A DNA stretch of 64,000 bases from Candidatus Zixiibacteriota bacterium (GTDB lineage Bacteria > Zixibacteria > MSB-5A5 > WJJR01 > JAJRUJ01), in NCBI GenBank assembly GCA_020051695.1, contig JAGVQM010000011.1, positions 124,001 through 188,000 on the forward strand. Direction: 5' to 3'. Numbering within the stretch: position 1 is the stretch's first letter; each line of letters opens with the position of its first letter. Position numbers and translations under genes: made by a program. Below are positions 19,574-54,274 of the stretch, piece by piece. The notes under the pieces are model-generated. The model worked only from the letters and a program-made list of their open reading frames with translations. It was not told where the DNA came from and searched no databases.

Positions 19574-20923
19574 TTATCCCTTTTCCGTATCCTCGCTTAG
19601 TTCAAAACCGTTGATTTTCATGCCCGGCACGAGCATGACGGAATTAAACTGCGGGTAGACTACGCGCTCGGCGGCGATTGCCTCGACTTTGCCGAACATC
19701 TCCAACAGAGCGGGCGTGGCGCGCATATTGACGATCGGCTGCGCGATCGTCCCGTCTTTAATCCGAAATGTGCCGTCTAGGGTGGTACCGGTCATCTGCA
19801 CGCGGCGGGGGTTTAAATAGTTCAGGTACCAAAAATGCGTAATGAGGATGCCCTCCGGTGTGGAGGTAATCAAATCGTCAAACGGCACAGTCCCCGGAGA
19901 GATGGCCATATTTTTGGGATACGGCCCAAAGGTATTATCCGGGGGGAGTGCATGGCCGGTGGATTCCATGCCCGCCTTTTTTGCATTACGCCGGTCGAAG
20001 ACGACACCTTTGGCGATACCGTTTTCGATGAGGGGCACGCGCTTCTTCGGAACGCCTTCATAGTCGAATGGCATCCCGGCCATCTCCGGGGCGAAGGGGT
20101 CCTCGATGATCGTGATATTTTCTCCGGTGACCTGTTGGCCCATCTGGCGGGCCATAAAACTCCGGCCCGAGGCAAAAGAGCCGCCGCCAAAACCAAGGAA
20201 CCCCAGGAACAGCAATAACTGTCCGACTGCTGCCGGTTCGAGGATGACTGTGTATTCTCCCGGCGGATGTGGTTGAGGGTTGCGTGAGGTTACCGCTTTA
20301 AGTACGGCAACCCGGGTGACCTGTTCCAGGTCGAGTTTGCCGACATCACGGTGATAGCCGGTGGCCCAGCCGGAGGCGTTGGCCTTGTCATCCGAGGCGG
20401 TCAGCGAGAATTCAGCGGCGGTTTCCGCGAAATATTGTGTAGTGCCTGCTGAATTGACGATTGTCGAGGATCTCACTTCGGTCTTGAACAGACCGGAGGC
20501 CAGCACACCGGCTTTGGTGCACGCCTCGGTTGCTGCTTTGATTATCGCTGCCCGGTCCTCGGGTGAGTAATCAGCCGTGGCAGGCGAAAACGCGCCCGGA
20601 GTGGGGGGTACCGCCGGTGAGGCAACAAATCCCGGAAAATCGGGATCAGGATTCTGGTTTTCGGCGATTTCCAGCGCATGTTCAATCGTGGCCCTGATCG
20701 CCTCCGGTTCGATGGAGTTGCCCACTGCGAGGCCGACCCGGTCACCCAGCCCAACCCGGGCCATGATTTCGTGGTCGGCCTGTTCGATATTCTGATGGAT
20801 GATGTTTTCGGCAAACCGCGACAGGGCGGTATTGCTCTCAATGCAGACCAGTTCGAGGTCTTTGCCCGGGGTGGCCGAAACCGCCGCAGTCAATCGTTTG
20901 ATTATGTCGTCATTGGTCATCAT
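19574..20923 (-). CDS. TldE/PmbA-like subunit of the TldD/TldE metalloprotease
   Basis: 449 residues, 15 bases downstream of tldD. It has the TldD/PmbA layout: an N-terminal domain with LELVCIESNTALSRFAENIIHQN, the central barrel with GYHRDVGKLDLEQ, and the C-terminal region EDPFAPEMAGMPFDYEGVP, then RVPLIENGIAKGVVFDRRNA and NFGPYPKN-like PDNTFGPYPKNMAI. The HExxxH zinc motif is absent, as expected of the inactive TldE partner. TldE and TldD form a heterodimer enclosing the active site and cut unfolded peptides, for example microcin and thiazole/oxazole peptide leaders. Paired genes here suggest a complete protease. Confidence 0.92.
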   Translation of the reverse strand: MMTNDDIIKRLTAAVSATPGKDLELVCIESNTALSRFAENIIHQNIEQADHEIMARVGLGDRVGLAVGNSIEPEAIRATIEHALEIAENQNPDPDFPGFVASPAVPPTPGAFSPATADYSPEDRAAIIKAATEACTKAGVLASGLFKTEVRSSTIVNSAGTTQYFAETAAEFSLTASDDKANASGWATGYHRDVGKLDLEQVTRVAVLKAVTSRNPQPHPPGEYTVILEPAAVGQLLLFLGFLGFGGGSFASGRSFMARQMGQQVTGENITIIEDPFAPEMAGMPFDYEGVPKKRVPLIENGIAKGVVFDRRNAKKAGMESTGHALPPDNTFGPYPKNMAISPGTVPFDDLITSTPEGILITHFWYLNYLNPRRVQMTGTTLDGTFRIKDGTIAQPIVNMRATPALLEMFGKVEAIAAERVVYPQFNSVMLVPGMKINGFELSEDTEKG

Positions 20924-20938
20924 CGATGATTTTTCCGC

Positions 20939-22402
20939 TTATCCGCCGATTTTTACATTGGCAAACCGTGCCGGCGACGTTCCCTGGGCGGTGGCAATGG
21001 TCTGTCCCGGCTGACCCTTGCCGCAGGAGGGCGTACCCCAGATGCGGTGTTCCGCTGCCGTGCCGATCGCAGTACAGGAATTCCAGAATTCGATAGTGTT
21101 CCCCGAATATACCGGGTTTTTAACGATGGCCCCCAATTTGCCGCCGGTGATCAGCCGGCCGATTTCGCCGCCCAGTTGGAAATTTTCCCGCCGGTCATCA
21201 ATCGACCATGACGTGGGTGTCTGAATAAAAATCCCATCATCGGTTTCGGTGATCATTTGTTCGAGCGTTTTATCGCCGGGGGCGAGGATCGTGTTGGTCA
21301 TGCGGATCAGCGGCAGGTACGCCCATGATTTGGCGCGCATCGACGCATTGGATTTCATCCCGATCCTGGCCGCAGTTTCCCGCGAGGTGAGGTACCCGAC
21401 AAGCACACCCTTTTCGATTAACGGTGATCGCGCGGCGGGCACACCTTCATCGTCATAGGCAAACGAGCCCAGGCCGCCCGGGGCGGTCGGATCGGTAAAC
21501 ACATTCACGATTTCCGAACCATACTGCAATTTCCCCAGTCGATCGGGCGTGGCGAAACTCGTCCCGGAAAAATTCCGTTCCGAACCGTAAACCCGGTCCA
21601 ACTCCAGCGGGTGGCCGATGGATTCATGCAGCTGCAGGGACACCAGGTCTCCCGAAAGGATGAGCGTACATGTTTTTTGCGGACATTCCTCCGCCTGCAT
21701 GAGTGCTTGGGCCTCCTCGGCAGTTTGTTCGATCCCGGCTTCCAGTTGCAGCCGTTCGATCAGTTCGTAGCCGGCAGTTTCGTATTGCCCGCCGGAGGTG
21801 GGGTACGATCGTTCGATCGAGCCGCCGTGCCCGCCGCCGACGCCTGCGGTAATGCCGCCGCCCGAGCGGAATATTTCCTGTTCGATCCGGCTGCCTTCGC
21901 TGGAAAAGAAATACCGCAGTTCCCGTTCAAACGACATTGCGGCTGAAGTCCGGGTCAACCCTTCCACTGCCCGCAACGTGCTGTCCAGGTGGACCGCGTA
22001 GGCCAGTTTTTCCTTCAGCGGGATCTCAAATGGATTTTTGATGATGGGTGTCCGAAAGGACGCGGTAATCCCCTCGATTTTTCCGGGGTTTACGCGTTCG
22101 CCGGTCAATTTGGCCGAGGCGCGCGCGATCTTTACGGCGCGGTCCCGCAGGGCGGCGGCCGATTCCGGTGTGACTTCGGCGGCCGCAGCAAAGCCCCAGC
22201 AGCCATCCACCAGCACCCGCACCCCCAGCCCGATGCTTTCCGACCGGGCCAATTTTTCAGGGCTGCCGCCCTGCACGCTGATTTCTTCTGCCGTCAGATG
22301 AACAATGCGGCAATCGGCATAGACGACACCAGACGCTGACGACACATCAACGGCGGCTGCACCGGCTTTATCAATTAATGGTCCGGACACGGTCTCCTCC
22401 AC
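20939..22402 (-). CDS. tldD: TldD metalloprotease catalytic subunit
   Basis: 487 residues. The zinc motif HESIGH (His259, Glu260, His264; consensus HExxxH) is followed by PLELDRVYGSERNFSGTSFA, a TldD signature. Other family marks are SYPTSGGQYETAGYE before it, and GSFAYDDEGVPAARSPLIEKGVLVGYLTSRE after it. It ends with GTPSCGKGQPGQT, typical of TldD. With TldE it cleaves unstructured peptides and modified-peptide leaders. The gene opens a minus-strand operon tldD-tldE-small ORF-prmC. No RiPP synthetase is visible near, so a natural substrate in this window is not obvious. Confidence 0.95.
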   Translation of the reverse strand: MEETVSGPLIDKAGAAAVDVSSASGVVYADCRIVHLTAEEISVQGGSPEKLARSESIGLGVRVLVDGCWGFAAAAEVTPESAAALRDRAVKIARASAKLTGERVNPGKIEGITASFRTPIIKNPFEIPLKEKLAYAVHLDSTLRAVEGLTRTSAAMSFERELRYFFSSEGSRIEQEIFRSGGGITAGVGGGHGGSIERSYPTSGGQYETAGYELIERLQLEAGIEQTAEEAQALMQAEECPQKTCTLILSGDLVSLQLHESIGHPLELDRVYGSERNFSGTSFATPDRLGKLQYGSEIVNVFTDPTAPGGLGSFAYDDEGVPAARSPLIEKGVLVGYLTSRETAARIGMKSNASMRAKSWAYLPLIRMTNTILAPGDKTLEQMITETDDGIFIQTPTSWSIDDRRENFQLGGEIGRLITGGKLGAIVKNPVYSGNTIEFWNSCTAIGTAAEHRIWGTPSCGKGQPGQTIATAQGTSPARFANVKIGG

Positions 22403-24628: not shown

Positions 24629-27220
24629 CTACTTGATAATCACGATTTTGCCGATGTGGGTGCCCCAGTCCGATTCCACCGAGTACAGGTAAATCCCCGA
24701 AGTCACCGCCTGGGTGTTGCGGGTGATCAGGTCCCACGCCGTGTGCGACGGCGTGTCCGAAAAACGGCTGGACGGATGATGTAACTCCCGGATCAAATCG
24801 CCATCCAGCGAAAATATTTTGATTATGCACTCCGGCGGCAAATTGACGAAGTGGATGCGGCGCGTCCGCTCTTTAAACCCCTCCCGGTTGGGGTCCTCAT
24901 ACCCCATCTCGCGGTACCCGGCATCGATCTTGTAAGGGTTGGGATAGACCGAGACCGGCAACCGTTGCTCTTCGACATACTCGGGGGAATAGGTCGGGTA
25001 GGCCAGTTGCATGTTGGCCTGGACCGGTGATTCCAGTGACTCGATCCCGCCCGCCGCGACGCCGGCATCAAAGGCGGTCACGGCAAAATAATATGGCTGA
25101 CTGGGCAACAGGTTGTCGATCGTGCATTCATAGTGGCCGAAATATTTCCACGTTTGACTGCTTTCGTCCAGCAAAGAATCGGTGCGCACGTATTGGATGG
25201 GATTGGATGTTATCATGCCGCCTTCGAGATATTCGTTGCCGCGGTTCCCCCCGTGGGGCTGGAAGTAGAACAGGTTGCCGTCATCATCCTGATAGGGGGA
25301 GAACTTGTCGCGATAGTCTGCCGGATTGACGAAAGGATCATGCTGCGCGGCGATCTGTTCGAGGGTCAGCGGCGGGCCGTCAAGCACCCACGGGCTGGGC
25401 CGCGCCGTGGGGATATAGCGGTAGCGGTCGAAGTTGACCAGGTCCCAGGAGGCCATCAGGGTCATATTATCGGGATTGTCGCCGATCCCGGCGTAGACGT
25501 TATAGCCCTCGAAGTCCTCGCAGAGGGCGAAGGGGTCATAAAAATTCTCGATGTCCCGGCCGGTCCAGACCATGCGGATCGTATGCGGTTGGGTGTGAAT
25601 CGTGATTTGCGGGGAGGGTGGGGGAGATGGACCTTTCAAATCGGGGATGCCGTCACCGGCATAAAAGATGGTATCGCAGGCGATGTAATCTGTGAAACAC
25701 CTTTCGTCATAACAATAGACCGTGTCCGGCGAATAGAAACAATAATCTTTCAGGCAGGTATCGATTTCGCGGCAATTGACGGTGAAATATTTTCCTCGAT
25801 TTCCATCGCCGTCGGTGTCGACACCTGGGTTGTCGTAAGTAATGTCCGCCCGTTGCGCATTACTAGCCAGTGCTGAAAAATCCAGGTTATTATACCATTC
25901 TTGTCCATTAGAATTCAAGTTGCGTTTATTATTCGGATCGCGATGGAAATAATCTCCTGCTACGACGGCCAGACCGATGGGAATCGAATCGCCCGGAGCC
26001 AAATCATAAGGTCCCGTTGACAAAAGGAATGATACCATAGCACCATCGGCGAGGTTGTATGGAGGCCACGACGTAATCGCTTTTGCGGGGGGCGTGATCC
26101 ATCCGGGCATTTCATCATGGGCCAGATATTGATCATAATCAATCTCCTTGTTTGCCATATACCGATATTTTTGCTGGTCGCCTATTGGTGACCCGCATTT
26201 TCCAGTAATTGATCGGTCACCCGGTTTTCGCTGCGGCCCCCAATCAGCCCACCAATTAAAAGAATATTCTGGTTCAGATAAGTCATCTCCCTGTACGTTG
26301 CTGAGACCGACAAAACGAATTCCCATTGCCGAGCGTGTGCTAAGTTCATTCCAAGACAACAAACGACCGGGATCGCCGTCGTTATCGGCCCACCATGCTG
26401 TCTTTATGGGGATTTCGACACCATGACCCGTAATTGAAGGATATTTTTCCAGGTATCCTACCATATTATCCCGGCCAGCCCGTGGCGCGGTGTTGAATAG
26501 GTGATGAACCTCGGGGTAAACCCAAATTCCAATACGTAATCCGTGCAATACTTCGCGGCGCATGTTAGTAATCCAATATTGGATGATCACAAAATCTTCT
26601 GCATATTCATATGACCATACATATGAATTTTGCCGTATGCGAATGTTGAGTGGCGAATGTCGTTGCAGGGCCGCTTCATCCAACGGCACGTACGCAGGAT
26701 CGGTCAGAGTATCCGAATATTCGCAATGATACTCTTGTGAAGAGGAGGCTCTTTTGTCATAGAAAGGGTTATTCGGGTCGGAAGACATGATGGAGATATC
26801 TCCCCCGTCACCGTAATCAGTTGGATAAAATTCAGTGAGCGTAAACGCGGTTGATACCAAAGTGTCGTCGCCGCGGATGGTCGGCACAAGAGCCCCAATC
26901 CATAAGGCGCCACAGGCCAGGTATTCGAAATTATCTGCAGATGGGAAAGTTGCGCCGGGAGTCCGCAAACCGGTAACTGGATCAGTGAGTATACCCATCG
27001 GGTTACCGAAAACACCCCAATTAGTTATGGTCAAGTGCAACCGACCCAAAGTGTGCACTTTATGGGTTATATAGGGCTGGTTGCCTGTATGATCAGCTGC
27101 GATATGCATACAACGGAATGTCGAATCCATTTCGGCATCATCTGCTGCCGCCAAATGACGGGTTACTGTACAAATAACAATTGCGACCGCGAGTATGGTT
27201 ACATCCGCGATGCGGTTCAC
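24629..27220 (-). CDS. Large secreted protein with FlgD/sorting-type C-terminal domain
   Basis: 863 residues. Signal peptide ADVTILAVAIVICTV then HLAAADDAEMD. Most of the chain is a large domain rich in G, D, N, W and Y (about 50-520), of a type frequent in secreted proteins of FCB-group genomes; I do not recognise a catalytic site. A fibronectin-III-like segment (about 560-740) contains FEGYNVYAGIGDNPDN and QPYYFAVTAFDAG. The last 100 residues start with SVYPNPYKIDAGY and end with SGIYLYSVESDWGTHIGKIV, the layout of a FlgD Ig-like or T9SS-type C-terminal domain, which directs or holds proteins at the cell surface. A Cys-rich stretch near 530 (NCREIDTCLKDYCF) may form disulfides. Confidence 0.8.
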   Translation of the reverse strand: MNRIADVTILAVAIVICTVTRHLAAADDAEMDSTFRCMHIAADHTGNQPYITHKVHTLGRLHLTITNWGVFGNPMGILTDPVTGLRTPGATFPSADNFEYLACGALWIGALVPTIRGDDTLVSTAFTLTEFYPTDYGDGGDISIMSSDPNNPFYDKRASSSQEYHCEYSDTLTDPAYVPLDEAALQRHSPLNIRIRQNSYVWSYEYAEDFVIIQYWITNMRREVLHGLRIGIWVYPEVHHLFNTAPRAGRDNMVGYLEKYPSITGHGVEIPIKTAWWADNDGDPGRLLSWNELSTRSAMGIRFVGLSNVQGDDLSEPEYSFNWWADWGPQRKPGDRSITGKCGSPIGDQQKYRYMANKEIDYDQYLAHDEMPGWITPPAKAITSWPPYNLADGAMVSFLLSTGPYDLAPGDSIPIGLAVVAGDYFHRDPNNKRNLNSNGQEWYNNLDFSALASNAQRADITYDNPGVDTDGDGNRGKYFTVNCREIDTCLKDYCFYSPDTVYCYDERCFTDYIACDTIFYAGDGIPDLKGPSPPPSPQITIHTQPHTIRMVWTGRDIENFYDPFALCEDFEGYNVYAGIGDNPDNMTLMASWDLVNFDRYRYIPTARPSPWVLDGPPLTLEQIAAQHDPFVNPADYRDKFSPYQDDDGNLFYFQPHGGNRGNEYLEGGMITSNPIQYVRTDSLLDESSQTWKYFGHYECTIDNLLPSQPYYFAVTAFDAGVAAGGIESLESPVQANMQLAYPTYSPEYVEEQRLPVSVYPNPYKIDAGYREMGYEDPNREGFKERTRRIHFVNLPPECIIKIFSLDGDLIRELHHPSSRFSDTPSHTAWDLITRNTQAVTSGIYLYSVESDWGTHIGKIVIIK

Positions 27221-27437: not shown

Positions 27438-27689
27438 CTACCAGCACTCACAGAAAATCTCGCAAACAAGTGCTGAATCCCAATGCCCACAAAATTTGTA
27501 CCCCCATTCCGGGTGAGGTCCTCCCCATTCCTCGCCTGGCGTGCACCCGGGTGGGCAAACGCCCATGAAACAGCATAGATCTGGTTCCGCGTTAGCATTC
27601 GCGGAATTGTCGACCGCCGTAAACGCATAGCTGAAAGCCACCGAAAACACGAAAATCAGCACGAATACAAATTCCATCCGCTTTTTCAT
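27438..27689 (-). CDS. Small secreted Cys-rich peptide
   Basis: 83 residues, ATG 27689 behind a strong AGGAGG at 5 bases, and 9 bases after the thioredoxin-like gene. Signal peptide: basic MKKRMEF, core VFVLIFVFSVAFSYAF. The mature part holds eight Cys in about 55 residues (DLCCFMGVCPPGCTPGEEW, then KFC, LVCEIFCECW), an even number fit for four disulfides, with many Gly, Pro and Trp. NANAEPD after the signal recalls the NVEALA-type exported peptides of Bacteroidetes, but the match is loose. The adjoining TlpA-like protein may oxidise or repair its disulfides. Function unknown. Confidence 0.65.
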   Translation of the reverse strand: MKKRMEFVFVLIFVFSVAFSYAFTAVDNSANANAEPDLCCFMGVCPPGCTPGEEWGGPHPEWGYKFCGHWDSALVCEIFCECW

Positions 27690-27698
27690 ACCAACCTC

Positions 27699-28304
27699 CT
27701 ATCTCTGTTGATTCCGCCCGGCCCCGGCAGCATCATTTGCCTTGATTATGTCTTTGAAATCGTCGTCCTGCAACGCGTCGGCAATTATCTCCATGACGAT
27801 GCGATCGCGATTTACGATAACGTTGAAGGGATAGGTGAAAATCCCCAGCTCGCGGCTGTATGCCGACCCCTGATCGCAGAGGACTGTTAACGGCAAGGCC
27901 AATCCTCGTTTGTGGTCTGCCAGAGCTTGCGGGTCCGCTGCGGAGATAAACAAAAACAGGGCGTAATCCGCAGTATCCAGGCAGGCGTCTTGCAGCCGTT
28001 CGAACTCAAAAACGCAGGCCTCACAATCAGGATAATAAAACGAGACAAGCGTCTTTTTAGAAAGTAAGTCGCTCAGCCACACCGGGTTCGATTCAAAGTC
28101 TTCAAAACGGTGGTCGGGGAGTCTATCCCCGATCTTGATGGTACCCATTTCCTCCAGGATGGCCGTGGTCTTTTCGGTTCGGTCGGCAAGAAATTTATTT
28201 GCCGTTGTATAATGCGCGGCCTGGCCGCCCAGCAATAGTCCGGCCGTGATGACCGCGGCAAAAATTGCGCCGCCGATGATCATGTTCCGCAGTGTCTTCC
28301 ACAT
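27699..28304 (-). CDS. Membrane-anchored TlpA/redoxin-like thioredoxin-fold protein
   Basis: 201 residues from ATG 28304 (CGGGG site 8 bases upstream; GTG 28313 possible). One N-terminal membrane helix (IIGGAIFAAVITAGLLLGG) anchors a periplasmic thioredoxin-fold domain: GDRLPDHRFEDFE, then FYYPDCEACVFEFERLQDA with the CxxC redox pair CEAC, LFLFISAADPQAL, and a cis-Pro region near FTYPFNVIVNRDRIV. TlpA/ResA-like proteins reduce or exchange disulfides outside the cytoplasmic membrane. The gene precedes the Cys-rich secreted peptide by 9 bases, so both are probably translated from one mRNA, which points to that peptide as a substrate. Specific role is inferred. Confidence 0.82.
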   Translation of the reverse strand: MWKTLRNMIIGGAIFAAVITAGLLLGGQAAHYTTANKFLADRTEKTTAILEEMGTIKIGDRLPDHRFEDFESNPVWLSDLLSKKTLVSFYYPDCEACVFEFERLQDACLDTADYALFLFISAADPQALADHKRGLALPLTVLCDQGSAYSRELGIFTYPFNVIVNRDRIVMEIIADALQDDDFKDIIKANDAAGAGRNQQR

Positions 28305-28656
28305 GCCGAACACCCCGGGATTTCGTGGTGAGCAGACTGCCGGCTAGCCCATGGATAGCCGACGCAGTCTCCACCCGGCCTGTCTGTGCTTGCGCCCGAC
28401 ACCAGGTGTTTTGCCCCGTGGATGCGCCACAGGCATTCAGGCAACAGAGCGACCGAACCGATAATAAATCCCGCATCAGGTCAAACCGATGCTATTCACC
28501 AAGTAAGGGGGGGGGATTCTATGTCAAGAAAAATCTGTAATATTTTAAAAAAGTGAGTGGTTTAAACCAAAAACGCAAAAACTGCTCCGCAACCTGACAA
28601 GTGCCGTCAAAATATCCCGCAGAAATTGCGGCGGAAAGTATGCCCGGCAGGACAGG
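28305..28656. other. Intergenic region, no clear gene
   Basis: Between the thioredoxin-like gene and prfA. It holds a G run near 28507-28515, an AT-rich stretch (28516-28575) that could carry the promoter of the leftward thioredoxin/peptide pair, and a weak short hairpin (CCGCA/TGCGG on the minus strand, about 28615-28635) after prfA. Open frames on both strands read as non-protein. Confidence 0.4.
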
Positions 28657-46423: not shown

Positions 46424-46769
46424 CATTCATTTTCTATCAGTGGAAGGCATTGTACAGTAATTCGTTATGCGAAAACAACGCGCGTCAATAGCGTCTTGCT
46501 AATGAGTGTTATTTCCGATTCCGTAAATGTTCGACGGAAGATAGCAATATTTTTACGAGGGACAGAGTCCAATATCCAGCCCACCCAATCTGCAGCAGGA
46601 ATGCTGAAAGTTCATACAGTCGGCGAACGTATGCAGGTCTCGGTGAACCCGCGTATTCTTCCTGTTTTTTTAAATTCCGTTGACATCTGTACCCACAGAC
46701 CCCTGGTTTTTGGGTAAACTGGTATTTGCGTCGAAATCCAGGGGCATAAGACTGGAGCAGGGTACATGT
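46424..46769. other. Intergenic region upstream of the kinase array
   Basis: Between the tRNA and the first kinase. It should carry the promoter of the tandem kinases. A TTGACA at 46680-46685 lacks a good -10 at 16-18 bases. Several short open frames read as non-protein. Nothing else is recognised. Confidence 0.35.
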
Positions 46770-49055
46770 ATGACTGTCGGTGATCACGATGACGACAAGA
46801 CCCGGACCCACGTGACACTCACCAGCGGCACGATGGTCTCCCACTACCGGATCATCGAAAAGATCGGCGCCGGTGGGATGGGCGAGGTCTACCTTGCCGA
46901 AGACACCGAACTCAATCGAAAAGTCGCGCTCAAGTTCATCCCTTCTTATTTGTACCAGGATGCCGATTGCCGTGCTCGGTTCAAGCGCGAGGCGCAGGCG
47001 GCGGCGAAACTGAATCATCCGAACATCGTGACGATATACGAAGTCAGCGAATTCAATGGTCGGCCGTTTTTCGCAATGGAAAACGTGGAAGGGCAGACTA
47101 TTCGCGATTTCAGCAAAGGGAAAGAACTCCCACTCAGCCGAATGATCGAGCTTGCGATACAGGTCTGTGAGGGATTGGCCAAAGCACATTCGACGGGTAT
47201 AGTCCATCGCGACATCAAGCCATCCAATATTCTGATTGATCAGGATGGTCGGGCTAAGATCGTCGACTTTGGGTTGGCGTCCGTGATGGGGTCGGATCAA
47301 CTCACCAAGACCGGCTCGACTCTCGGCACGATTGGGTATATGTCGCCGGAGCAGGTTCGCGGAGAGAAAGTCGACGGGCGTTCCGATTTGTTCTCTCTCG
47401 GAGTTCTGATTTATGAATTGGTGTCGGGGGCGCCGCCATTTGTGTCTGAAAACGAAGCCGGCGCGTTATATGCGATTCTCAATCTCTCACCTGAGCCGCT
47501 CAGCAGGTACCGGGCGAATATGCCCGCCGGTCTGCAAAGGATCGTGGCCCGGCTGCTGGCCAAGGGACCGGACAGACGATATCAAAACGCAACGGAGGTC
47601 ATCAGCGATCTGGCCGCGTTGCGGGCGGGGCAACCTCCGGTCGGTCTCGATCAAACGCCTGCGCCGTCCGTCGCCGTTTTACCCTTTGCCAATCTCAGCG
47701 CCGATCCCGAACAAGAGTATTTCTGCGACGGTATGGCGGAGGAGATTATAACCGCCCTGACGCAAATCGAGGATCTCCGGGTCATCGCTCGGACTTCGGC
47801 CTTTGCCTTCAAAGGCAAAAACGAGGATATCCGCGATATCGGACGGAAACTCGGCGTAACCGTGCTGCTCGAAGGCAGCGTGCGTAAGGCCGGATCACGG
47901 CTGCGCATCACCGCGCAGCTTATTAATGTCGACGATGGTTCTCATCTTTGGTCGGAGCGATTCGATAGGGAATTGGAGGACATCTTCGCCGTTCAGGAAG
48001 AAATCGCCCAGGCAATCGTGGAAAAAATGAAGTTGAAACTGGCCCGAAAGCCGGATGAATCGTTGATCCGAAAGCGGACCGAAAATCTGGAAGCGTACAG
48101 CCTGTTCTTGAAAGGTCGGTATTACTGGCACCAACTTACGTCCAAAGGCTGGAGACTAAGCCTGGATTGCTTTCGACAAGCGATCGCTATAGACCCGGAA
48201 TATGCCATGCCGTATACCTGGATAGCGATCTGGTACCAGAGTCAGGCATTTTGGGCAGACATATCTCCGAATGAAGCCTACACCAGATCCACCGAGGCAA
48301 TGGAGAAAGCTCTGCGCCTTGACCCGAATATTGCCGAGCTCTATAATGTACGGGCCGTATGGCGCTTTGCGTATGAATGGAACTGGGAAGCTGCGGAGCT
48401 CGATTTTGAGAAAGCCCTGGAATTGGGGGCAACAACTGCTCTCTCCCATACGAATTTCTCGACTTTCCTAGTCACGCGCAGGCGGTTTGACGAAGCCACA
48501 CGGCATATGGAAATCGCCAGGAAGCTCGATCCCTTTTCGAGCCTGATCTGCACCTGGGCTGCACTCCCCCCTCTGAACGCCGGCGATTATGATAGGGCCA
48601 TCGATTTATTGGACGCAGCGGTCAAACTGGATCCGACATCTTGGCAGCCCTATTTCAATCTGGGCATGGCGTATATGGGTCTTGCGAAAGCCGACCATGC
48701 CATCGCTGTCTTGCAGAAATCATTCGAATATTCGGGCGGCGCTTCAATAGTGCTTATGGCGCTCTCAATCTGCTATTATCAGGCCGGCATGATGGACAAG
48801 GCTGATGAGTATCTGGATCTGTTGCACGAGCGGGCAGAGCATGTCCACATCGCTCCCATGTTTTTTGCATGGATTGCCATCGCGCGCGGCGATGTCGATC
48901 GGGGCATCTCCTGGATTGAGAAAGCGAAGCTGGAACACGACCCCTGGATTTGTTATGCCGACTTGCCTGTGACCGTTTTGAAGAGCCAGGATCCACGTAT
49001 CAACGCCATACGCAGATCTATTGGATTGCCGGTTACGGGAACGGAGCACGAGTGA
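46770..49055 (+). CDS. Ser/Thr protein kinase with TolB-like domain and TPR array, kinase 1 of a tandem set
   Basis: 761 residues from ATG 46770 (GGAGCAGGG upstream). The kinase domain (24-285) is complete: Gly loop IGAGGMGEV (32-40), VALKF with Lys55, HRDIKPSN with catalytic Asp149, and DFG at 167-169, then GTIGYMSPEQVRGE. No membrane helix follows. Instead, about 305-440 (PSVAVLPFANLSADPEQEYF, ITAQLINVDDGSHLWSERFD) matches the TolB-like/FlgO-type domain often fused to kinases and adenylate cyclases. The rest is TPR-like (AYSLFLKGRYYWHQL onward). A soluble member of the set; target unknown. Confidence 0.92.
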   Translation: MTVGDHDDDKTRTHVTLTSGTMVSHYRIIEKIGAGGMGEVYLAEDTELNRKVALKFIPSYLYQDADCRARFKREAQAAAKLNHPNIVTIYEVSEFNGRPFFAMENVEGQTIRDFSKGKELPLSRMIELAIQVCEGLAKAHSTGIVHRDIKPSNILIDQDGRAKIVDFGLASVMGSDQLTKTGSTLGTIGYMSPEQVRGEKVDGRSDLFSLGVLIYELVSGAPPFVSENEAGALYAILNLSPEPLSRYRANMPAGLQRIVARLLAKGPDRRYQNATEVISDLAALRAGQPPVGLDQTPAPSVAVLPFANLSADPEQEYFCDGMAEEIITALTQIEDLRVIARTSAFAFKGKNEDIRDIGRKLGVTVLLEGSVRKAGSRLRITAQLINVDDGSHLWSERFDRELEDIFAVQEEIAQAIVEKMKLKLARKPDESLIRKRTENLEAYSLFLKGRYYWHQLTSKGWRLSLDCFRQAIAIDPEYAMPYTWIAIWYQSQAFWADISPNEAYTRSTEAMEKALRLDPNIAELYNVRAVWRFAYEWNWEAAELDFEKALELGATTALSHTNFSTFLVTRRRFDEATRHMEIARKLDPFSSLICTWAALPPLNAGDYDRAIDLLDAAVKLDPTSWQPYFNLGMAYMGLAKADHAIAVLQKSFEYSGGASIVLMALSICYYQAGMMDKADEYLDLLHERAEHVHIAPMFFAWIAIARGDVDRGISWIEKAKLEHDPWICYADLPVTVLKSQDPRINAIRRSIGLPVTGTEHE
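46791..46910 (+). repeat. Kinase-head direct repeat, unit 1 of 4
   Basis: About 110 bases encoding DDDKTRTHV to EVYLAED are closely conserved at DNA level at the starts of four consecutive reading frames (about 46791, 49075, 51644 and 54273). The last copy has lost the rest of its gene. Such near-identical blocks allow unequal recombination. Confidence 0.75.
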
Positions 49056-51628
49056 TGGAAAAATCAGATGGAAACGACAAGACTCGGACCCACGTGTCCA
49101 TAACAAACGGCACGATGGTCGGGCACTACCGGATCATCGAGAAGATCGGCGCCGGTGGGATGGGGGAAGTGTATCTGGCCGAAGATACCGAGCTTGATCG
49201 AAAAGTCGCGCTCAAGTTTCTGCCGTTCCATCTTTGTCAGGACGACGACTGCCGCAAACGGTTCAGCCGCGAAGCGCAGGCATCAGCCAAGCTCAATCAT
49301 CCGAACATTGTCACGATTCATGAGGTCAGCGAATTCAATGGACGCCCCTTTTTTGCGATGGAGCATCTTGAGGGTCAGTCACTGCGTGAGATGATCAAGC
49401 AGAAGGAACTGCCGCTCTCTCAGTCCATACAGATTGCGGTCCATCTAGGCGAAGGTTTGCAGGAAGCACACGCCAAAGGCGTAATCCATCGCGATATCAA
49501 GCCCGCCAACATCACCTGCGACGGCAAGGGTCATTGCAAGATCCTCGACTTCGGACTTGCGGCTGTCCACGGCGGCGAACACTTGACGAAGACCGGCTCC
49601 ACCCTCGGCACCGTGGGCTATATGTCCCCCGAGCAGGCCCGCGGCGAACAAGCAGACGCTCGCTCGGATCTGTTTTCTCTCGGCGTTGTCCTGTACGAAA
49701 TGATTACCGGCAGATCCCCGTTCAAAGGCGAGTCCGATGTGGCGACCATCAAAAATGTCATCGAAGTTACTGCCGAGCCGCTGGCGCGGTACAAGAATGA
49801 CGTACCGGATGATCTGCAAAGGATCGTCGACAAACTCCTTTCCAAGGACAAGAGTTTTCGCTACCAGCATGCCGATGAATTGTCGGCGGACCTCAGACGC
49901 CTGATATCGACAGTCAGCTCTGCACCGAGCCCGATCAGGCGGAAACGCCGAATTGTGATGCCGTCACTTGTGATATTTGGCGTGTTGGTCGCCATCGTGG
50001 TTTTTAAACCTTGGCGAATGGTGATAAAGCGGGCGGATGAAACCAAAGCCGCCACCAAGCGCGTCGCAGTGGTGCCGTTCCGCAATCAAACCGGAGACCC
50101 GTCGCTTGATCCATTGGGAAAAATGATTGCCGATTGGACGACGCAGAGCTTGCTACAGACGGGACTGGCAGAAGTTGTTCCGCCTGAAAGGTTGTTCCAG
50201 CTTGAAGAGAACAATAGTGCCCGCGACATTGCCAAGTCAACCGGCGCAAGCACGATTGTCATGGGCTCCTATTACAAACCGGGTGAGACCATCCAGTTTC
50301 AGGCGAAAATCCTGGATGCCAACGAGAAGATTCTTCAGGCGATTGAACCCATAACTTCGCAGCCAACGAAAATAATGGACGGAGTTGAATCTGTGCGCCA
50401 GCGGGTGCTGGGTGCTCTGGCCATGGTGCTGGATGAACGGCCGGAAAGAGAAGTGGAGGCGGCATCAAAGCCTCCAACTTATGAGGCGTACCAACAATAT
50501 ATCCAGGGACTGGATCTGTATATTAAACAGCTCGACTATTCCGGAGCACTCGAATACTTCAAGCGAGCTTACGCCATCGATACAACATTCATCTCTCCAT
50601 TGATCTGGGCCTCTTATAGTTATGGGGTCTGTGGGCAGATGAGACAGGTAGATTCCCTGGTGCGCTTTCTTAATCTACGCCGCGCTCAACTCACTCCTCT
50701 TCAGCAATTATGGTTAGACGCGCAGAGCGGTTTTGTTTCAGGTGACTGGATGAAATCTCTGAATGCCTGGCGAAAAGCCGCCGAGATCGCGCCGGGGTCT
50801 TTCGATCCTTTTGATTGGGGTGTTACTGCATATGGGGTAAATCGCCCGAAGGAGGCGATTGAGGCATTGAAGACGGCTGACCAGGAACAACAATGGCTCC
50901 CCTATTGGAATTTCTTCACTGCTTCATACCACTCTCTGGGGGAGCACGAGAAAGAGCTCGAAATTGCCAAACAAGCTCGCCGAAGATTCCCGGACTCTTT
51001 CGACCCCCTGAATTATGAAGTCCGCGCTTTCGCCGCTCTGGGAAAAATAGCGGAGGTCAGGAGACTTATCGAAGAAAGTCTGACTCTTACTAAACCCGGT
51101 ACCGCAGGCGACCCCGGAGGTACCATGATAACCGCCGGAGAAGAATTGCGCGCTCACGGGTACGAAGACGCTGCTATGACAAGTTTTGACCAGGCAATAC
51201 AATGGTACAGAAGCAGACCGGCCGAAGAGATGGATGGCCTCCGTTACGTCTATGGCCTCACACTGTATGACGCTCGCCGATGGGAGGAGGCAAAAAGCAT
51301 TTTCGAGGAACTTGGCAAGACGTCGCCTGACAACATGGTGTATCAGAGGTATGTTGGTTGTATAGCCGCCCGGCAAGGTGATCGAGAAGAAGCGTGGAAA
51401 GTCTCCGAGTGGCTTAAGAACCTGAAGAAGCCATATCTTTTAGGCGAGCATACCTATTACCGTGCCTGTATTGCCGCAATTTTGGGAGAAAGAGATGAAG
51501 CTGTAACCCTGTTGCAGGATAGCTTCTTGCAGGGATACCCCTACAGAATTTACTTGCATCCAGACTTTGATTTTGAATCGCTGTGGGATTACTCTCCGTT
51601 CAAAGAGCTGCTGAAGCCGAAAGGGTGA
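49055..51628 (+). CDS. Membrane Ser/Thr protein kinase with TPR-like sensor, kinase 2
   Basis: 857 residues; ATG 49055 overlaps the stop of kinase 1 (TGATG). Kinase domain with IGAGGMGEVYLAED, Lys54, HRDIKPAN, DFGLAAVHGG and SPEQARGEQADARSD. A single membrane helix is near 300-318 (MPSLVIFGVLVAIVVF), so the C-terminal part is exported. It begins with RVAVVPFRNQTGDPSLDPLG (TolB/FlgO-like) and continues as a TPR-like helical region (about 480-850: EALKTADQEQQWLPYWNFF and others). It is divergent from kinase 1 outside the head and kinase domain. Target and signal are unknown; extracellular sensing is likely. Confidence 0.9.
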   Translation: MEKSDGNDKTRTHVSITNGTMVGHYRIIEKIGAGGMGEVYLAEDTELDRKVALKFLPFHLCQDDDCRKRFSREAQASAKLNHPNIVTIHEVSEFNGRPFFAMEHLEGQSLREMIKQKELPLSQSIQIAVHLGEGLQEAHAKGVIHRDIKPANITCDGKGHCKILDFGLAAVHGGEHLTKTGSTLGTVGYMSPEQARGEQADARSDLFSLGVVLYEMITGRSPFKGESDVATIKNVIEVTAEPLARYKNDVPDDLQRIVDKLLSKDKSFRYQHADELSADLRRLISTVSSAPSPIRRKRRIVMPSLVIFGVLVAIVVFKPWRMVIKRADETKAATKRVAVVPFRNQTGDPSLDPLGKMIADWTTQSLLQTGLAEVVPPERLFQLEENNSARDIAKSTGASTIVMGSYYKPGETIQFQAKILDANEKILQAIEPITSQPTKIMDGVESVRQRVLGALAMVLDERPEREVEAASKPPTYEAYQQYIQGLDLYIKQLDYSGALEYFKRAYAIDTTFISPLIWASYSYGVCGQMRQVDSLVRFLNLRRAQLTPLQQLWLDAQSGFVSGDWMKSLNAWRKAAEIAPGSFDPFDWGVTAYGVNRPKEAIEALKTADQEQQWLPYWNFFTASYHSLGEHEKELEIAKQARRRFPDSFDPLNYEVRAFAALGKIAEVRRLIEESLTLTKPGTAGDPGGTMITAGEELRAHGYEDAAMTSFDQAIQWYRSRPAEEMDGLRYVYGLTLYDARRWEEAKSIFEELGKTSPDNMVYQRYVGCIAARQGDREEAWKVSEWLKNLKKPYLLGEHTYYRACIAAILGERDEAVTLLQDSFLQGYPYRIYLHPDFDFESLWDYSPFKELLKPKG

Positions 51629-51631
51629 AAT

Positions 51632-54274
51632 GTGAGCCGGCCTGACGACGACAAAACCCGAACCCACGTGATGCTGACCGAGGGCACAATGGTCTCGCAC
51701 TACCGGATCGTCGAGAAGATCGGGGCCGGTGGGATGGGGGAAGTCTATCTGGCGGAGGACACCGAACTCAATCGGAAAGTCGCGCTCAAGTTTCTCCCTT
51801 CTCATCTATGCCAGGATGCCGAGTGCCGCGCTCGGTTCAAACGCGAAGCCCAGGCGGCGGCCAAGCTGGATCATCCCAATATCGTCTCAGTGTTTGAAGT
51901 CGGTGAGTTTCAGGGGCGGCCCTTTTTCTCGATGCAACATGTCGAGGGGCAATCCCTTAGAGAGGTCGGAGCAGGCAAGCCCCTGCCTCTTGAGAGAATT
52001 ATTGAGATCGGCATTCAAGTATGCGACGGACTCCAAGCAGCGCACGATAAGGGGATCACCCACCGGGATATCAAACCCTCGAATATTCTGATTGATGCGC
52101 GCGGCCGGGCGCGCATTGTCGACTTTGGCTTGGCGTCGGTGCTTGGAAGTGAGCAATTGACCAAGACCGGATCGACGCTGGGAACCATCGGCTATATGTC
52201 GCCGGAGCAGGTACGGGGTGAAGCGGTCGACCATCGCACCGATCTGTTCTCTCTCGGAGTTATCCTCTACGAACTGATCACTGGCCATTCGCCGTTCAAA
52301 GCGGATTCTGAGGCGGCAACTCTGCACGCAATCACAGATACGAAGCCGGAACTGTTGGCGCGTTTCAGACGCGATGTTCCATCTAGTCTGCAGGTCACAG
52401 TTGATAAGGCGCTGGACAAGGACACGGCAACCCGTTACCAGCATGCCGACGACCTGGCCATTGACCTTAAGAGGCTCTCCTCTGCTGCAGTCTCCAGACA
52501 AATACCTCGTCGCGATTGGTGGAACCGCTATGTGGTCACTGCAGCAGTTGCTGTTTTATTGATCATGGTCGGCTACTGGGGTGTGACCTCGATCCTCACA
52601 AAGGAGGGACAGAAGCCGGAGCCTGCCCGCAAGATGCTGGCCGTATTGCCATTTGAGAATCTTGGCGCAGCGGAGGACGAGTATTTTGCCGACGGGATCA
52701 CCGATGAAATCACCGCTAAACTGGCGGCAATCCATGATCTGGGAGTAATCTCGCGCACCAGTACCATGCTCTATAAGCATTCGACCAAACGCTTGCGGGA
52801 GATCGCCAAAGAGCTGGGTGTCGATTATATCCTGGAAGGATCAATTCTTTGGGACAAAGGTGGTGATACCAACCACGTGCGGATTCTCCCGCAGTTAATT
52901 CGGGTGTCTGACGACACTCATTTGTGGGCGGAGACATACCATCGCCCGCTGACCGGCATTTTCGCTTTGCAAGCGGACATTGCCACCCGGATCGCGGAGG
53001 CAATGGACATCACTCTGCTTGGCCCGGAGCATGCTGCCCTGGAGTCAATGCCAACAAAGGACTTGGACGCTTATCAGGCGTACCTGCGCGGCACGGACTG
53101 TGAGCGTGGAGCTGATGTCTCTTCGCGGGAGAAAGTTTCAACTGCGGTGCACATGTTTCAACGGGCCGTCGAGCTTGATTCCACCTTCGCTCTGGCATAC
53201 GCCCACCTGGCGCACGCTCACGCCGGGATGTTCCATTACGGATTTGACACCACTCCGGAACGCCTTGCCCAAGCCAGAGTTGCTGCCGATCGGGCACTCG
53301 TTCTTCGGCCGGATCTTCCCTGGACGCACTGGGCACAGTGCTACTACTACTACTGGGGTCATCGCGACTATGACCGGGCGCTCGAGGAAATCACTCTCGC
53401 GGAGGTCGGACTCCCTGACGATCCGGACATTATGAGCACCAAAGGATTCATCTGGCGGCGGCAAGGGGAGTTCAAGGCCGCGGTTGAACAAATGCAGAAG
53501 GCGTTTGTGCTGAACCCTCGCGACGCGGTATTGGCGCTCATGATCGGACAGACCTTCATGCAGGGGCGTGAATACGCATCGGCGGAGAAGTTCTTTGACC
53601 GGACAATCTCTCTGAGTCCTGACGGATTGACCGGGTATCTCTACAAGGTTCAGAATTACCTGGCGTGGCGTGGCGACACGGCCTTGGCCCGTGCGGTCTT
53701 AGAGTCGATCCCGAAGCAGGATGAGGAAGCCGTACGGCTGGGATGGTCCCGGCTCAATCTGCTTGAACGGGACTACGCCAGGGCACTCACCCAACTGACG
53801 TCGCTGCCCCCACTGCCGGAACCAAGCCAGAGTTATTTTGTCCCCAGATCCCAATTCGCAGGTATGGTCTATTACTACATGAATGACCGAGACCGTGCCC
53901 GCGCCTGCTTCGATTCCGCCCGTGTGATCCTGGAGGGACAAATCAAGGAACGGCCGGACGACCATCGCATCCACAGTTCGTTAGGTGTTGTCTATGCCGG
54001 CCTGGGTCGCAAGGCGGACGCCGTTCGCGAAGGCAAGTTAGGCGTGGAACTCTTCCCAGTGAAGAAGGATGCCTTCATCGGACCTTCCAAAGTGGAGGAT
54101 CTTGCCTTGGTCTACCTCATGGTGGGCGAGTATGATGCCGCGCTGGGTCAAATCGAGTATTTGCTTTCGATACCCTCGTGGGTCTCGATTCCGCAGATTC
54201 GTCTTGATCCCCGGTACGACCCATTGCGTAACCTGCCACGATATCAGAAACTAGTGGAGAAATATGGCCCCTGA
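51632..54274 (+). CDS. Membrane Ser/Thr protein kinase with TolB-like and TPR domains, kinase 3
   Basis: 880 residues from GTG 51632, AAAGGG about 6 bases upstream, only 3 bases after kinase 2. Kinase motifs IGAGGMGEVYLAED, VALKF, THRDIKPSN, DFGLASVLG and GTIGYMSPEQVRGE are intact. A membrane helix is near 300-320 (VVTAAVAVLLIMVGYWGV). The outside part starts with KMLAVLPFENLGAAEDEYFA and WAETYHRPLTGIFALQADIA (TolB-like, as in kinase 1), followed by TPR-like repeats (SLSPDGLTGYLYKVQNYLAW, HRIHSSLGVVYAGLGRKADA). The 3' end overlaps the stump of a fourth kinase by 11 bases. Likely a receptor kinase. Confidence 0.91.
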   Translation: MSRPDDDKTRTHVMLTEGTMVSHYRIVEKIGAGGMGEVYLAEDTELNRKVALKFLPSHLCQDAECRARFKREAQAAAKLDHPNIVSVFEVGEFQGRPFFSMQHVEGQSLREVGAGKPLPLERIIEIGIQVCDGLQAAHDKGITHRDIKPSNILIDARGRARIVDFGLASVLGSEQLTKTGSTLGTIGYMSPEQVRGEAVDHRTDLFSLGVILYELITGHSPFKADSEAATLHAITDTKPELLARFRRDVPSSLQVTVDKALDKDTATRYQHADDLAIDLKRLSSAAVSRQIPRRDWWNRYVVTAAVAVLLIMVGYWGVTSILTKEGQKPEPARKMLAVLPFENLGAAEDEYFADGITDEITAKLAAIHDLGVISRTSTMLYKHSTKRLREIAKELGVDYILEGSILWDKGGDTNHVRILPQLIRVSDDTHLWAETYHRPLTGIFALQADIATRIAEAMDITLLGPEHAALESMPTKDLDAYQAYLRGTDCERGADVSSREKVSTAVHMFQRAVELDSTFALAYAHLAHAHAGMFHYGFDTTPERLAQARVAADRALVLRPDLPWTHWAQCYYYYWGHRDYDRALEEITLAEVGLPDDPDIMSTKGFIWRRQGEFKAAVEQMQKAFVLNPRDAVLALMIGQTFMQGREYASAEKFFDRTISLSPDGLTGYLYKVQNYLAWRGDTALARAVLESIPKQDEEAVRLGWSRLNLLERDYARALTQLTSLPPLPEPSQSYFVPRSQFAGMVYYYMNDRDRARACFDSARVILEGQIKERPDDHRIHSSLGVVYAGLGRKADAVREGKLGVELFPVKKDAFIGPSKVEDLALVYLMVGEYDAALGQIEYLLSIPSWVSIPQIRLDPRYDPLRNLPRYQKLVEKYGP

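What the first reader, a model, noticed from the sequence alone, without database searches (positions are those of the whole stretch)
27438..28304. Secreted eight-Cys peptide coupled to a thioredoxin-like partner
An exported 83-residue protein with eight Cys and a strong ribosome site follows a membrane-anchored CxxC thioredoxin-fold protein by 9 bases. It could be a disulfide-rich toxin, signal or adhesive peptide with its own redox helper. The NANAEPD start of the mature part faintly recalls NVEALA exported peptides, which lie near similar redox genes in Bacteroidetes.
Basis: partly seen in the sequence, partly recalled or inferred. Interest (0 to 1): 0.56.

Follow-up and report, generated by a model that had tools for sequence, protein, structure and literature searches.

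The report
Secreted cysteine-rich peptide with redox partner
A poorly known bacterial lineage carries many different exported, cysteine-rich small proteins, and most copies examined sit right behind a gene for a membrane-anchored thioredoxin-like protein that probably helps them fold.

Summary
On the minus strand a 204-codon membrane-anchored redoxin (CEAC) is followed after 9 bases by an 83-codon exported peptide with eight Cys, then by an 863-codon secreted protein. Of 36 strong redoxin relatives in 132 genomes, 27 have a short secreted Cys-rich ORF directly downstream, 3 stop at a contig edge and 6 have none; canonical TlpA proteins (W..CxxC) have none (0 of 11). The peptides are highly diverse, match no Pfam or NCBIfam family above cut-off, usually keep a CC pair, and have an even number of mature Cys in 57 of 61, as full disulfide pairing predicts. 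The genome has DsbD but no DsbB or VKOR; across the phylum DsbD-type proteins are in 125 of 132 genomes and VKOR in 2. I favour a reduced, isomerase-like redoxin that proofreads the peptide's disulfides. Six redoxins have lost one or both active-site Cys, which speaks against simple oxidase chemistry. What the mature peptide does (signal, antagonist, subunit of the large protein) is not shown. NVEALA membership is not supported. New variant of a known kind (sublancin/BdbAB-like peptide plus oxidoreductase).

The parts
27699..28313 (-). membrane-anchored redoxin (TlpA/ResA-like), active site YYPDCEAC, 204 aa (201 aa from the ATG at 28304)
   Evidence: AhpC-TSA 39.5 bits, Redoxin 34.0 bits; profile matches ResA and thioredoxin-family structures
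27695..27700 (-). AGGAGG ribosome site of the peptide gene, overlapping the redoxin stop codon
   Evidence: read directly
27438..27689 (-). exported Cys-rich peptide, 83 aa; signal 1-34 (ANA|EPD), mature 49 aa with 8 Cys including CC
   Evidence: cleavage site inferred from the AxA pattern
24629..27220 (-). large secreted protein, 863 aa: beta-supersandwich-like domain (about 50-470) and a weak Por-secretion-tail-like C-terminus; third gene of the cassette, 217 bases downstream
   Evidence: Por_Secre_tail 14 bits, below cut-off 27; Z up to 18.7

Best explanation
A dedicated folding pair. The peptide is exported by Sec and cleaved after ANA (inferred). Its eight cysteines form disulfides in the periplasm (inferred from even Cys numbers across the family). 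The redoxin, held in the inner membrane with its CxxC domain in the periplasm (inferred from sequence), binds the emerging peptide and reshuffles or proofreads its disulfides, being kept reduced through the DsbD relay (inferred). The folded peptide then acts outside the cytoplasm, most likely together with the large secreted protein encoded next to it, as a secreted ligand, antagonist or small subunit. The pairing, diversity and Cys pattern are shown; chemistry and final role are inferred.
For: Pairing: 27 of 36 strong redoxins (>=70 bits) have the peptide at 1-158 bases (median 48 over 26 with a measured gap; one overlaps), 3 are at contig edges, 6 have none; leaving out the 6 seed loci it is 21 of 30 (L024 counted by eye). 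Control: canonical W..CxxC TlpA proteins 0 of 11. Disulfides: 57 of 61 peptides have even mature Cys; with >=5 Cys after residue 28, 54 of 57 are even against 32 of 62 other ORFs in the same DNA. pN below pS in all 11 pairs compared. Redox setting: DsbD present, DsbB and VKOR absent in this genome; 125 of 132 and 2 of 132 genomes for DsbD_TM and VKOR. The large protein lies within 1 kb of a non-canonical redoxin in 28 of the 70 large-protein ORFs listed (loci not randomly chosen).
Against: Six strong redoxins (L053, L056, L060, L106, L062 as CxxS; L110 as SxxS) lack the dithiol, five of them with a peptide beside them, so a catalytic dithiol is not always needed. Three strong full-length redoxins (L053, L063, L064) have no peptide. 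Some peptides lie away from any redoxin seen in the fetched stretch (L019, L020, L021). No disulfide, export or interaction was measured. Absence of DsbB/VKOR does not exclude another oxidant; DsbB was sought in this genome only.
Confidence: 0.5

Rival explanations
1. Oxidase pair: the redoxin makes the peptide's disulfides de novo, as BdbA/BdbB are thought to do for sublancin, and the product is an antibacterial peptide.
For: Operons joining a disulfide-rich bacteriocin to a thiol-disulfide oxidoreductase are in print (PMC6606811, PMC6405829, PMC8620827, passages read). Mature parts vary more than signals in paralogues of one genome (G115: signal 70-88%, mature 33-47% identity).
Against: No DsbB or VKOR in this genome, VKOR in 2 of 132; redoxins without a dithiol persist. 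I saw no immunity-like gene among the ORFs listed nearby, though this was not searched for systematically.
Confidence: 0.18
2. MauA-like small subunit: the peptide is the disulfide-rich light subunit of the large secreted protein next door, and the redoxin is its dedicated folding factor, as MauD is for MauA (parallel recalled).
For: Frequent three-gene neighbourhood; cassette-linked large proteins group together more than by chance (4 label changes against a shuffled mean of 21.4-21.7); the large protein carries a sugar-enzyme-like beta-supersandwich.
Against: The large-protein family is in 132 of 132 genomes, usually in several copies, far more widely than redoxin or peptide; the peptides differ too much for an obvious conserved interface; the grouping test used chosen loci.
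Confidence: 0.17
3. Metal-binding or thiol-buffer peptide: the cysteines bind metal or cycle with the redoxin rather than forming structural disulfides.
For: High Cys content with CC pairs (50 of 61).
Against: Even-number bias; most Cys positions are not shared between members (33 aligned peptides: invariant C39, C40, C67, nearly invariant C76).
Confidence: 0.08
4. Chance neighbours: an ordinary TlpA beside a short ORF.
For: None beyond the single locus.
Against: Recurrent pairing and clean controls; purifying selection.
Confidence: 0.01

Closest known systems
Sublancin SunA with BdbA/BdbB, and pallidocin with its thioredoxin-like and DsbB-like proteins
   Same: A small disulfide-bonded secreted peptide encoded with a thioredoxin-like oxidoreductase (passages: PMC6405829, PMC8620827, PMC6606811).
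   Different: There: ABC export, glycosylation, DsbB-like partner, immunity gene. Here: Sec-type signal, no glycosyltransferase, transporter or DsbB-like protein among the directly adjacent genes as read, TlpA-type redoxin.
MauD and MauA of methylamine dehydrogenase (recalled; one search found no paper with all terms)
   Same: Membrane-anchored thioredoxin-like protein just before a small exported Cys-rich subunit.
   Different: No Mau family among the Pfam or NCBIfam matches of redoxin or peptide; MauE and MauG were not searched for.
NVEALA peptides (PF14055)
   Same: Short exported peptides; Cys content and neighbourhood to redox genes are recalled, not tested.
   Different: No PF14055 match in the genome or among 33 peptides.
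DUF6520 (PF20130)
   Same: Weak likeness of 4 of 33 peptides, best E 0.0026; 16.4 bits over most of its length for the one shown.
   Different: Below the 25.4-bit cut-off in all 132 genomes; 0 papers name it.
TlpA/ResA thioredoxin-like proteins
   Same: Fold family, N-terminal anchor, CxxC.
   Different: The peptide-linked members lack the W..CxxC site; some lack one or both Cys.

Membership tests
AhpC-TSA/Redoxin superfamily (redoxin gene) | score above Pfam cut-off | tested here: met
   39.5 bits against 26 for the window protein; all 16 aligned members match at E<=0.01
TlpA/ResA-type thiol-disulfide oxidoreductase | CxxC in a membrane-anchored thioredoxin-fold protein | tested here: met
   CEAC and N-terminal hydrophobic segment in the window protein; sequence profile matches ResA structures; some relatives lack the CxxC
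NVEALA (PF14055) | match to the family model | tested here: not met
   0 in own genome; not listed for any of 33 peptides at E<=1
DUF6520 (PF20130) | match above cut-off | tested here: not met
   0 of 132 genomes over cut-off
Sublancin-type bacteriocin system | ABC transporter/peptidase, glycosyltransferase and immunity gene beside the peptide | tested here: inconclusive
   ORFs were read by eye; no family search of all neighbours was run
Sublancin-type bacteriocin system | antibacterial activity | not testable with these tools
   needs an assay
MauD/MauA | MauE and dehydrogenase heavy subunit in the operon | not tested
   adjacent genes are prfA-like by reading and the large protein; no Mau model was searched in the genome
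Large protein as glycoside phosphorylase/hydrolase (GH94/GH116) | beta-supersandwich domain | tested here: met
   model residues 50-471, Z 18.7, 251 aligned, 3.4 A; whole-model mean pLDDT only 54
Large protein as glycoside phosphorylase/hydrolase (GH94/GH116) | catalytic (alpha/alpha)6 barrel | tested here: inconclusive
   the region after 470 is mostly below pLDDT 50

The most novel reading that the evidence does not exclude
A phylum-wide peptide diversification system: a conserved aromatic-rich signal joined to a fast-changing disulfide-rich mature peptide, folded by a dedicated membrane redoxin that in some lineages has become a dithiol-free chaperone, and acting with a neighbouring beta-supersandwich surface protein in signalling or competition between cells.
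Probability: 0.2. Interest if true: 0.8.

Novelty: new variant of a known kind. Interest (0 to 1): 0.55.

Why it matters
Disulfide-rich secreted peptides with their own folding helper are known from a few bacteriocins. Here the arrangement recurs across a little-studied phylum, in a genome with no DsbB or VKOR match, and in lineages where the helper has lost its cysteines. It offers a natural series (CxxC, CxxS, SxxS) for asking what such a helper really does, and a source of uncharacterised disulfide-rich scaffolds.

Tried and rejected
NVEALA membership: tested and rejected. DUF6520: below cut-off. Phr-type signal peptide: one of 33 peptides matched TIGR04429 at E 0.00076, taken as signal-sequence likeness and not followed. 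AlphaFold2 model of the peptide: mean pLDDT 56.7, mature part mostly below 50, so no fold is claimed. Promoter/terminator scan: site numbers within about one standard deviation of shuffles. Redoxin in plasmid records: only a weak hit in two Neisseria records. The one genome-contig scan gave two loci, both Candidatus Zixiibacteriota; spread outside the phylum therefore stays untested, and the phylum search returned 132 genomes, the same number as the class search. A first parity test against 50% (p 2e-13) was replaced by an empirical null because unrelated ORFs are also biased to even numbers at >=4 Cys (59 of 86). With >=6 Cys the contrast is weaker (54 of 56 against 32 of 40, p 0.015). Signal more conserved than mature part: true for paralogues of G115, not for the G114/G083 or G116 pairs. 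Papers: 'NVEALA' 0, 'Zixibacteria'+'thioredoxin' 1, unrelated by title, 'Zixibacteria'+'peptide'+'cysteine-rich' 0, further term sets 0; most subscription papers are not in that library.

Rows dropped: three of 64 candidate peptides (L030 65 aa, L065, L122) were left out of the parity count as chance ORFs. L024 and L030 were counted by eye as having a peptide because the redoxin ORF as taken reads over it. L107 is counted as having a peptide, but its mature part departs from its relatives and may be broken.

Full report
Observation. On the minus strand of the window lie, in order of transcription, a redoxin (27699..28313), an exported 83-residue peptide (27438..27689) and a large secreted protein (24629..27220). 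The redoxin carries YYPDCEACV and an N-terminal hydrophobic segment and passes the Pfam cut-offs of AhpC-TSA and Redoxin. The peptide has a hydrophobic signal ending ANA|EPD and eight Cys in its 49 mature residues. Nine bases separate the two genes, and the AGGAGG of the peptide overlaps the redoxin stop codon. The peptide matches nothing in Pfam or NCBIfam.

Origin. The window lies in a 3.5 Mb genome of 43 contigs. Two named relatives of the redoxin are both Candidatus Zixiibacteriota. The phylum search held 132 genomes, as many as the class search.

Relatives. With the peptide alone 10 of 98 genomes matched at E<=0.1; most of the better matches sit beside the same redoxin. A peptide model matched in 27 of 132 genomes at E<=0.01, a redoxin model in 55 of 132 at E<=1e-8. 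A second peptide subfamily with the core CCWVMVC..PPI.CWEECRPCP was found in 24 of 132 genomes at E<=0.001; where its neighbours were read it mostly follows another, more distant redoxin.

Census. Among non-redundant redoxin ORFs in the fetched loci, 36 score at least 70 bits. Of these 27 have a short secreted Cys-rich ORF directly downstream, 3 end at a contig edge, 6 have none; three of the 6 are short fragments from one genome, G121. Without the 6 seed loci the figures are 21 of 30, 3 and 6. Of 11 ORFs with a canonical W..CxxC site none has one. Of the 27 weaker non-canonical redoxins 16 have one (15 by script and L030 by eye), 11 do not, one of these at a contig edge. Of the longest non-redoxin genes 1 of 79 had one, and that one (L141) is a cassette redoxin read through.

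The peptides. They are very diverse (33 aligned members, mean column identity 20%) but share an aromatic-rich signal and mostly a CC pair (50 of 61). Mature Cys numbers are even in 57 of 61. Against other ORFs of the same DNA with at least 5 Cys after residue 28, 54 of 57 are even compared with 32 of 62. This is what full disulfide pairing predicts. In all 11 related pairs compared pN is below pS.

Redox direction. This genome has a DsbD-type protein and no VKOR or DsbB match. In the phylum DsbD_TM matches 125 of 132 genomes and VKOR 2 of 132; DsbB was not searched beyond this genome. A reduced, isomerase-like redoxin fits this better than an oxidase. Six strong redoxins have lost one or both active-site cysteines (L053, L056, L060, L106, L062 with CxxS, L110 with SxxS); five of these six still have a peptide. 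Monothiol CxxS proteins can act in isomerisation (recalled; one search gave only a listing), but SxxS cannot, so there the protein must act as a binder or be decayed.

The large protein. Its family is in 132 of 132 genomes, mostly in several copies. The members beside redoxin and peptide group apart from most others (4 label changes against a shuffled mean of about 21.5, loci not randomly chosen). The model of the window member is poor overall (mean pLDDT 54), but residues 50-471 align with the beta-supersandwich domain of GH94/GH116 and similar enzymes (Z up to 18.7; Foldseek).

Known comparisons. Peptide-plus-oxidoreductase operons are in print for sublancin and related glycocins (passages read: PMC6606811, PMC6405829, PMC8620827). 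MauD/MauA is a second parallel from memory. No sequence match files the peptide under any of these. NVEALA is rejected.

Verdict. A real, recurrent cassette for which the libraries searched here have no name. Folding assistance with a bias to isomerase chemistry is the likeliest function of the redoxin; the role of the mature peptide is open.

Noticed in passing
window 24629..27220; The 863-aa protein belongs to a family found in all 132 genomes of the phylum, with a beta-supersandwich-like domain and no Pfam domain above cut-off.
   Followed up: partly
L026 1055-2035, L029, L032, L033, L034: Second peptide subfamily with a strongly conserved core CCWVMVC..PPI.CWEECRPCP, in L026 as three tandem copies behind a redoxin with FSPGCSVCK.
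   Followed up: partly
L053, L056, L060, L106, L062, L110: Redoxins of this family that lost one or both active-site Cys (CxxS or SxxS).
   Followed up: partly
L019 1501-2418; L061 2061-2794; L114: Short Cys-rich exported peptides in tandem, in L019 without a redoxin in the fetched stretch.
   Followed up: no
window 19574..22402: Two adjacent ORFs (449 and 487 aa) that look like a TldE/TldD pair by reading; not searched.
   Followed up: no
window 46680..54274: Three long ORFs in a row sharing a near-identical stretch near the start (DDDKTRTHV..GTMVSHYRI), resembling serine/threonine kinases by reading.
   Followed up: no
phylum-wide: DsbD_TM proteins in 125 of 132 genomes but VKOR in only 2 of 132.
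   Followed up: partly
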